In this document: positions 50,803 through 52,485 of the stretch, one piece after another
Layout: every line of letters starts with the position of its first letter
How positions within the stretch are numbered: position 1 is the stretch's first letter
Origin: Diogma glabrata
Lineage: Eukaryota; Arthropoda; Insecta; Diptera; Cylindrotomidae
DNA: 64,000 bases
Direction: 5' to 3'
Assembly: GCA_963693315.1 (NCBI GenBank)
Contig: OY856186.1
Span: forward strand, 303,434,586 to 303,498,585
Program-made: the position numbers and the translations under genes
The notes under the pieces: generated by a model
The model's database searches: none
What the model saw: the letters and a program-made list of their open reading frames with translations, nothing else
Told to the model about the DNA's origin: nothing

Positions 50803-51169
50803 AAAAAAGTCCAAGCGGCACGTATATCCGCTAGAAATAGGTAGATTTCGAGATCAGACAGTTTTGTGTGCCAGTAGAATCTGATGTATCAGATTAGTTT
50901 AAACAAAACAAACTAATTTCAAACAGATATCGAACAAATTTTAAAAAGAAAATTAGCTACCTACAAGCAAAATTATATGTATCCAATTTTGCAACAAACA
51001 AATATCAAATCTACCACAGAACATGTGTGTGATAATTTATGACACAAACCTACTCTATATCATATGTCGTGCAATTACTGCAAAATATCAAAATAGTTTA
51101 TTTCTAAGAAAAAAAAATTAATTTCTTCTATTCAAATCTTTTATTTTTTGACTGTTATAAGGTTGACAT

Positions 51170-52170
51170 TGACTGTTATAAGGTTTTTGGAAATTGTAGT
51201 TGGGGATTGTTGCAAACTTTTTTGTTGAAGCCAACAAGTCAAAAACCTCTAACTGCAGAGATTTATATTTATAAGAAACAGATTAAAATGTTTTTACAGA
51301 TTCTAAATTTATGAAGATTTTAAAAATATTAGTATCCAAACGGCCGTTATAACGGATTAAAAAAACCACTTTTTTTCCTAGTATAAAAGCTATAGTTCCT
51401 TAACCATGTGTCAGTCTTTTCTGATTTACGAACTTGTCCAAGATATTAATAAAACACACATGTTTACGAAAGGTTTTTTGATCTGGCTCCACAAATGCAA
51501 CCGTGAGAGCGCCGGTTGATTCAAACGCATTTTGTGTTTTACAAGCTTTTTTGTTGGAGCCGTTCACTCAGAAACCTCCAACTGCAGTGGTCTTTTTTTT
51601 GAAAGAAACTGATTAAAAAGGTTTCAAAGATTCTAAATTTATGAAGTTTTTAAAAGCATTAGAATCCAAACGGCCGTTATAACGGATCTAAAAAACAGAG
51701 TTTTTTTCTAGTATAAAGCCTCTTGTTTCTTAACCATGTGTTGGATTGGACTGATTTACGAACTTGTCCAAGATATTAACAAGACGCACATTTTTAGAAA
51801 AGGTTTTTTGATCTGGCCTTATAAATGCGACCGTGAGAGTGCCGGTTGTTTCAAAAAAAAAATTTTTTTTGCAAACTTTTTTGTTGGAGCCGCTCAGGAA
51901 CCTCTAACTGCAGAGGTCTAGATTTAAAACAAATTGATAAAAAAGATTCCAAAAATTCTAAATTTGTTAAATTTTTTGAAATATTAGTATCCAAACGGCC
52001 GTTATAACGGTTTTAAAAAATCAATTTTTTTCAGAAAAAAGCCTCTAGTTTCTTAACCACGTGTCGGATTTTGCTGATTCACGAACTTGTCCAAGATATT
52101 ATTAAAACACACAAGTACAGAAAATTTTTTTGATCTACCTCAACAAATGCGACCGTGAGAGTGCCGGTCG
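51170..52170 (+). repeat. Three ~329-bp tandem repeats in copy 5
   Basis: CCGTTATAACGG recurs at 51344, 51674 and 51999 (spacing 330 and 325), and GACCGTGAGAGTGCCGGT-type motifs at about 51500, 51828 and 52150. The units correspond one to one with those in copy 4, including shared differences between units, so the triplication predates both copies. Confidence 0.9.
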
Positions 52171-52193
52171 TTTTCGTTATATCTCATATCGTT

Positions 52194-52352
52194 TATATAT
52201 ATATATATATATATATATATATATATATATATATATATATATATATATATATATATATATATATATATATATATATATATATATATATATATATATATAT
52301 ATATATATATATATATATATATATATATATATATATATATATATATATATTT
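52194..52352. repeat. (TA)n microsatellite
   Basis: About 160 bp of pure TA inside copy 5, at the same position as in copies 3 and 4. Confidence 0.95.
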
Positions 52353-52485
52353 ATATATAAATTTTTTTTTTTTTGTTTTTTTGTCTCCGCTTATCATATA
52401 TAGTCGTTTGGCACAAAAATTTTTCCGAAATTCCGAGATGAAGCCCATTGCAATAGGTAGATTTTTATATGAAATCTACCTAAAA

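What the first reader, a model, noticed from the sequence alone, without database searches (positions are those of the whole stretch)
50803..52481. Helentron-like nonautonomous family with asymmetric ends, five copies in the window
Copies at 1-146, 15590-15820, 16320-16976, 39545-47696 and 50803-52481 share a terminal hairpin at one end only, a 12-bp motif (TAGGTAGATTTC) present near the 5' end and inverted at the 3' end, internal ~329-bp tandem repeats, a TA tract, and insertion inside T/A runs. These traits together are known from DINE-1/Helentron elements; the family itself is one I do not recognise.
Basis: partly seen in the sequence, partly recalled or inferred. Interest (0 to 1): 0.75.

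Follow-up and report, generated by a model that had tools for sequence, protein, structure and literature searches.

The report
Ordinary Helentron-type nonautonomous transposon (HINE) family

Summary
The repeat family is real: BLASTN finds it at all five places named. D (39545-47690) and E (50809-52481) are one element (96.3% over 1414 columns). D is split by a 6.6-kb TIR insertion. A runs off the window, C has a divergent 3' end, B is two 5' ends, one decayed. The conspicuous 11-bp hairpin is the 5' subTIR plus its inverted repeat. The true 3' end is the "GTCC" end: subTIR GAAATCTACCTA, a small AGCGG/CCGCT hairpin, GGAC, T-run. This matches published HINE/DINE-1 plans. A diverged paralogous empty site for copy C, 1 kb away, shows insertion in a T-run with no duplication except possibly Ts. 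The 330-bp array moved as a block: same-position monomers are 94.5-98.1% identical between D and E, others 82.1-86.3%. Copy number, host and autonomous partner are untested; the genome search failed in 8 of 8 tries. Known kind, low interest.

The parts
50809..52481 (-). Copy E, full-length nonautonomous element (true 5' end at 52481, 3' end at 50809)
   Evidence: BLASTN to D 96.3% over 1414 columns plus 129/129; ends listed
52454..52482 (-). E 5' end: subTIR (T)AGGTAGATTTC (52471-52482) and its complementary IR, 11-bp perfect hairpin with 7-nt loop
   Evidence: (2 of 200 shuffles fold as well over 103 nt)
52194..52359 (-). E (TA)n microsatellite
   Evidence: TRF
51213..52168 (-). E central tandem array, about 330 bp x 2.9
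   Evidence: TRF; monomer identities
50838..50849 (-). E 3' subTIR (GAAATCTACCTA on the element strand)
   Evidence: exact match
50814..50832 (-). E 3' hairpin AGCGG-9 nt-CCGCT, 5 nt from the 3' terminus
   Evidence: (1 of 200 shuffles fold as well over 98 nt, which hold other stems too)
50802..50808 (-). Flanking T-run (7 T on the element strand) at E 3' end
39545..47690 (+). Copy D, full-length element split by a 6.6-kb insertion in its TA tract
39544..39572 (+). D 5' subTIR plus IR hairpin
   Evidence: (0 of 200 shuffles fold as well over 97 nt)
39672..46284 (.). Foreign 6.6-kb insertion in D with short imperfect TIRs (AAGGTAA.../...TTACCTT); not part of the HINE
   Evidence: gap in D/E alignment; arms 39664-39701 and 46255-46292 82% complementary
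46322..47287 (+). D central tandem array, 330 bp x 2.9
   Evidence: TRF
47650..47690 (+). D 3' end: subTIR 47650-47661, hairpin 47667-47685, TGGAC to 47690, followed by T-run 47691-47696
   Evidence: (12 of 200 shuffles fold as well)
1..139 (+). Copy A, 3' end only (continues off the window), with an internal deletion of about 73 bp relative to E; T-run 140-146 follows
16314..16976 (-). Copy C, shorter relative: shared 5' hairpin, block A, TA tract, about one repeat unit; divergent 3' end without exact subTIR
   Evidence: 77.7% to E over 615 columns
17931..18085 (+). Diverged paralogous empty site for copy C
15793..15821 (-). B2, solo 5' subTIR plus IR
   Evidence: 30 of 31 identical to E 5' end; hairpin weak by energy, 27 of 200 shuffles as good
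15590..15718 (-). B1, decayed 5' end/block A
   Evidence: 67.8% to E over 152 columns

Best explanation
This is a nonautonomous Helentron-type rolling-circle element (HINE). SHOWN: in D and E, a two-ended anatomy with a terminal 5' subTIR plus IR hairpin, a TA microsatellite, a 3-unit satellite-like core, an internal 3' subTIR, a short 3' hairpin and T-run flanks; no long open frame; one diverged paralogous empty site for copy C. INFERRED: a RepHel (probably endonuclease-bearing) protein supplied in trans nicks at the T-run beside the 5' end, peels a single strand through the element, stops at the 3' subTIR plus hairpin, and inserts the strand in another T-run without duplicating target sequence. 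The tandem core travels as a passenger block.
For: Copies and ends. Hairpins. T-runs at 4 of 5 5' ends (not the decayed B1) and 4 of 4 3' ends. Empty site: the C flank aligns to about 17931-18057 (BLAST 17942-18063), and the 12 bases after C's 3' T-run reappear at 18066-18077 with 1 mismatch; at up to 1 mismatch that 12-mer occurs on both strands of the window only there and at C itself. Published plans with these parts in this order: mite HINEs, 3' subTIR about 38-60 bp and palindrome about 8-35 bp from the 3' terminus (passages and one section of PMC4067079); DINE-1, IR beside the 5' subTIR and stem-loop after the 3' subTIR (passages of PMC2374699); oyster, subTIR+IR+microsatellite, satellite core, subTIR+palindrome (passages of PMC7492417). 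Same-position monomers of D and E are 98.1, 95.8 and 94.5% identical; all other monomer pairs (within and between arrays) are 82.1-86.3%, so the array moved as one unit.
Against: No autonomous partner was seen, and the own genome could not be searched. The 3' hairpin is only 5 bp, and 12 of 200 shuffles fold as well over 43 nt. Copy C lacks an exact 3' subTIR and a credible 3' hairpin. The empty site is a diverged paralog (80% over 128 columns) whose far side aligns for only about 17 bp; with the register left free, 145 of 2000 shuffles score as well, and at up to 2 mismatches the 12-mer occurs 22 times on the two strands. A duplication of Ts cannot be excluded: C has 5+6 Ts against the six bases TTTTCT in the paralog. 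Perfect 11-bp hairpins as such are not rare in the window (13, of which 3 are these).
Confidence: 0.87

Rival explanations
1. The element is a nonautonomous Helitron2-type element (RepHel without endonuclease) rather than a Helentron derivative. The mechanism is the same in outline.
For: Helitron2 elements also have asymmetric TIRs and hairpins at both termini, and are reported to insert between TTTT and T or C (passages of PMC5148889). In the two empty-type sequences here (C paralog, and the LINE relatives of E's 5' flank) a TTTT is followed by C.
Against: The satellite-like core and microsatellite match described HINEs, though this does not discriminate strictly. At C's own filled site the base after the T-run is not C, and E's other flank cannot be compared.
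Confidence: 0.09
2. A MITE or foldback-like cut-and-paste element with a 2-bp or longer T duplication.
For: The 5' inverted repeat is terminal, and extra Ts flank copy C relative to its paralog.
Against: The inverted repeat partner is 29 nt inside the other end in D, and the printed 3' ends of A and E are the same there. The one empty site shows no non-T duplication.
Confidence: 0.03
3. A satellite or segmental duplication without transposition, or an assembly artefact.
For: Tandem arrays and several other duplicated stretches lie in the window.
Against: The copies share ends but not flanks: the nine flank queries blasted against the window (B_r and C_l cover the same stretch, and D_r lies within E_l) hit, besides themselves, only the C empty site, LINE relatives of E's 5' flank, and repeats 400 bp or more away from B. 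D lies in a LINE, with an ORF1-like frame on one side and endonuclease/RT frames on the other.
Confidence: 0.01

Closest known systems
HINE elements of Metaseiulus occidentalis / Culex (PMC4067079; passages and one section read)
   Same: 12-15 bp subTIRs, 3' one internal, 3' palindrome, T-rich insertion without clear TSD, microsatellite or tandem repeats in some copies
   Different: Mite subTIRs are themselves palindromic, lie 2-4 nt from the 5' terminus, and mite HINEs lack the DINE-1 type IR; here the subTIR is not palindromic, adjoins the T-run and has an IR. TAGGTAGATTTC does not appear in the passages read; the subTIR table (supplement) could not be read
DINE-1 of Drosophila (PMC2374699; passages read)
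   Same: 5' subTIR with adjacent partial IR, microsatellite in block A, central repeats, 3' subTIR then stem-loop, TT preference
   Different: SubTIRs in the table rows seen are of the (T)ATACC/TACCC type, unlike TAGGTAGATTTC; microsatellite there GTCY-rich, here TA; their 3' stem is 7-11 nt, here 5
Cg_HINE of Crassostrea gigas (PMC7492417; passages read)
   Same: Left flank with 11-12 bp subTIR + 7-12 bp IR + microsatellite, satellite-like central array, right flank with subTIR + palindrome
   Different: Mostly 4-nt microsatellite motifs there, TA here; sequences were not compared
FoHeli1/2, Helitron2-like elements of Fusarium (PMC5148889; passages read)
   Same: 5' terminal hairpin containing part of a 12-bp inverted repeat, 3' repeat 38-51 bp from a T-rich 3' terminus, hairpins at both ends
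   Different: Elements of about 5-6 kb starting TCAG or similar; no satellite core mentioned in the passages read

Membership tests
HINE (nonautonomous Helentron) | 11-15 bp subTIRs, 5' one terminal or within a few nt, 3' one tens of nt internal | tested here: met
   12/12 identical in D and E, 5' copy at the T-run, 3' copy ends 29 nt from the terminus (measured in D). Copy C has no exact 3' subTIR; A and B lack one end.
HINE (nonautonomous Helentron) | IR complementary to the 5' subTIR beside it (DINE-1 and oyster type; absent in mite HINEs) | tested here: met
   11-bp perfect hairpin in C, D and E; B2 imperfect, B1 decayed
HINE (nonautonomous Helentron) | Palindrome/stem-loop between 3' subTIR and 3' terminus | tested here: met
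   AGCGG/CCGCT in A, D and E, weak by energy (12 of 200 shuffles as good for A and D); not credible in C (182 of 200)
HINE (nonautonomous Helentron) | Insertion in T-rich site, no clear target-site duplication | tested here: inconclusive
   T-runs at 4 of 5 5' ends and 4 of 4 3' ends; one diverged paralogous empty site without non-T duplication; duplication of Ts not excluded
HINE (nonautonomous Helentron) | No coding capacity | tested here: inconclusive
HINE (nonautonomous Helentron) | Autonomous RepHel-endonuclease partner sharing the ends | not tested
   The genome search unreachable in 8 of 8 tries
Helitron2-type nonautonomous element | Partner RepHel lacking endonuclease | not tested
   same 8 calls
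Canonical Helitron1 | 5' TC, 3' CTRR with hairpin 10-12 nt upstream, insertion between A and T | tested here: not met
   5' end (T)AGGTAG, 3' end GGAC (A, D, E) or CACAC (C) followed by a T-run
MITE with TIRs | Inverted repeats at both extreme ends and a TSD | tested here: not met
   3' copy internal by 29 nt; no non-T duplication in the one empty site

The most novel reading that the evidence does not exclude
A satellite-carrying rolling-circle family that is driven by an endonuclease-less Helitron2-type RepHel and targets TTTT|C/T, including the poly(A) tails of LINEs, rather than by a Helentron. That would blur the HINE = Helentron rule.
Probability: 0.08. Interest if true: 0.35.

Novelty: new member of a known kind. 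Interest (0 to 1): 0.15.

Why it matters
It adds a family with a subTIR not seen in the passages read, and shows, from two copies, how a three-unit satellite-like array is transposed as one block. That bears on the idea that Helentrons seed satellite DNA. Otherwise it is routine repeat annotation.

Tried and rejected
Viral-contig scans: an 18-mer from the core gave 3 stretches whose exact similarity to E ends after 18-20 bases, so they were judged chance; the 5' hairpin, the 3' end and a core 22-mer gave 0 each. The phage collection by distant blastn, given 50803-52190 only, gave no match. Rfam at gathering thresholds gave no hit over the window, so a ribozyme-carrying repeat was not pursued. 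A host identification through the LINE ORF2 gave 26 hits, 4 of them named; the best named is Callosobruchus analis at 31% identity over 46% of the query, too weak to name the host. The LINE flank of E was tried as an empty site: LINE relatives at 57846 and 12528 match from 52488 on, but E's other flank is a different LINE, so only one side can be compared. Three paper searches gave listings; passages of four papers were read and one section of one.

Considered and rejected: true MITE/foldback (inverted repeat internal at one end), canonical Helitron (ends differ), segmental duplication (flanks not shared).

Full report
Observation. BLASTN of the elements against the window recovers all five named places. 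D and E are the same element: 1414 columns at 96.3%, plus 129 of 129 identical at the other end. The 6.6 kb between those two pieces in D (39672-46284) is an insertion with its own imperfect TIRs, sitting in D's TA tract. Within it lies a further stretch bounded by about 590-bp inverted arms, 93% identical (42185-45014). So the '39545-47696 copy' is a ~1.5-kb element with nested insertions. A is a 3' end cut by the window start, with a ~73-bp internal deletion relative to E. C shares 77.7% with E over 615 columns but has a different 3' end. B consists of a solo 5' hairpin (30 of 31 identical) and a decayed second 5' end. TAGGTAGATTTC occurs 7 times exactly; allowing 2 mismatches gives 15 matches against 6.9 expected by chance, with 0 of 100 shuffles reaching 15.

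Orientation. Compared with the published plans, it is the 5' end. DINE-1 has, beside its terminal 5' subTIR, a partial inverted repeat complementary to it, and has a separate stem-loop just downstream of the internal 3' subTIR (passages of PMC2374699). Mite HINEs have the 3' subTIR about 38-60 bp and the palindrome about 8-35 bp from the 3' terminus, with subTIRs 2-4 nt from the 5' terminus, but lack the IR (passages of PMC4067079). Oyster Cg_HINEs have subTIR, IR and microsatellite on the left, a satellite-like array in the middle, and subTIR plus palindrome on the right (passages of PMC7492417). Here, on the + strand of D: T-run, AGGTAGATTTC with IR (11-bp hairpin), about 130 bp, TA tract, 330-bp x 2.9 array, about 360 bp, GAAATCTACCTA, TTTCT, AGCGG-9-CCGCT, TGGAC, T-run. 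The subTIR ends 29 nt before the terminus. E, C and B are on the - strand; A and D on the + strand. The DINE-1 paper notes that 5' and 3' are arbitrary without ORFs, so this is an orientation by likeness of plan.

Hairpins. The 5' hairpin region folds better than nearly all shuffles in D, E and C (0, 2 and 0 of 200 as good), but not convincingly in B2 (27) or B1 (66). Perfect 11-bp hairpins are not rare as such: 13 with loops of 3-15 nt lie in the window, 3 of them these. The 3' hairpin is short: 12 of 200 shuffles fold as well over the 43 nt of A and of D, 1 and 7 of 200 over the longer ends of E and D, which hold other stems too. C's 3' end shows no credible stem (182 of 200). The 3' hairpin is therefore supported by position and by identity in three near-identical copies, not by independent covariation.

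Target site. T-runs of 4-5 precede 4 of 5 5' ends (B2, C, D, E; the decayed B1 has TTT only) and T-runs of 6-7 follow 4 of 4 3' ends; 1.5% of window positions directly follow a run of 4 or more T. If the Ts belong to the element these are not independent. For C, the flank beyond its 5' end matches 17942-18063 (80% over 128 columns). The bases that follow C's 3' T-run, ATTTAACTAAAC, reappear as ATTTAACAAAAC right after the paralog's T-rich stretch TTTTCT. That 12-mer with up to 1 mismatch occurs on both strands of the window only at C itself and at this paralog; at up to 2 mismatches there are 22 occurrences; and of 1994 uninterrupted T-runs on the two strands, 3 are followed by it at up to 3 mismatches, C itself being one. 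With the register left free, 145 of 2000 shuffles of the far flank score as well, so the far side alone is weak and the register is what makes it convincing. The joined flanks align best with 5-6 Ts; the filled site has 11 in all. Hence there is no non-T duplication, and the number of Ts carried or duplicated is undecided, the same ambiguity reported for mite HINEs (PMC4067079 section 6).

Core array. Monomers at the same position in D and E are 98.1, 95.8 and 94.5% identical; monomers within D are 82.1-85.4%, within E 83.2-84.4%, and at different positions between D and E 82.6-86.3% identical. The array therefore moved as a unit and has not been homogenised since.

Context. D lies in a LINE between an ORF1-like frame (38555-39406; no significant retrotransposon domain, its one Pfam match is a coiled coil below cut-off) and endonuclease/RT frames (48042-49820; Exo_endo_phos_2 and RVT_1). 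That the two sides are one LINE is inferred from order and strand. E's 3' end abuts the A-rich 3' end of that LINE. Its 5' flank is a fragment of another LINE (relatives at 57846 and 12528). The host was not identified.

Mechanism. A RepHel protein supplied in trans is the most likely mover, by analogy with the cited families. Nicking, strand displacement, termination at the 3' hairpin and T-run insertion are inferred. Whether the partner carries the Helentron endonuclease was not testable: the genome search did not answer in 8 of 8 tries. Helitron2 elements share asymmetric repeats and terminal hairpins and are reported to insert between TTTT and T or C (passages of PMC5148889), so they remain the main rival.

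Verdict. I did not find this subTIR in the passages read, but Repbase and the papers' supplements were not available, so 'undescribed' is not established.

Noticed in passing
window 39672-46284: 6.6-kb TIR element (AAGGTAA.../...TTACCTT ends) inserted in D's TA tract, longest open frame 198 aa, itself holding a stretch at 42185-45014 bounded by about 590-bp inverted arms; the 198-aa ORF (42739-43332) has no Pfam match.
   Followed up: partly
window 20605-21402: Inverted duplicate of a GIY-YIG ORF, overlapping on opposite strands (the minus-strand one tested); from memory, reminiscent of a Penelope-like element endonuclease domain.
   Followed up: partly
window 10500-11057 and 18576-19130: Two stretches 99% identical in inverted orientation about 7.5 kb apart, overlapping or bordering (ACCACCATG)n-type minisatellites.
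   Followed up: no
window 62091-64000: 287-bp satellite, 6.6 copies at 91% match, running to the window end.
   Followed up: no
window 9583-9680 and 20109-20183: GCCGGGCAATATT-like hairpin/tandem motifs recurring at two places.
   Followed up: no
window 15590-15821: Two HINE 5' ends in the same orientation about 100 bp apart; the outer 31 bp is nearly identical to the other copies while the sequence beyond shows no match, suggesting another subfamily sharing the 5' hairpin or a truncated insertion.
   Followed up: partly
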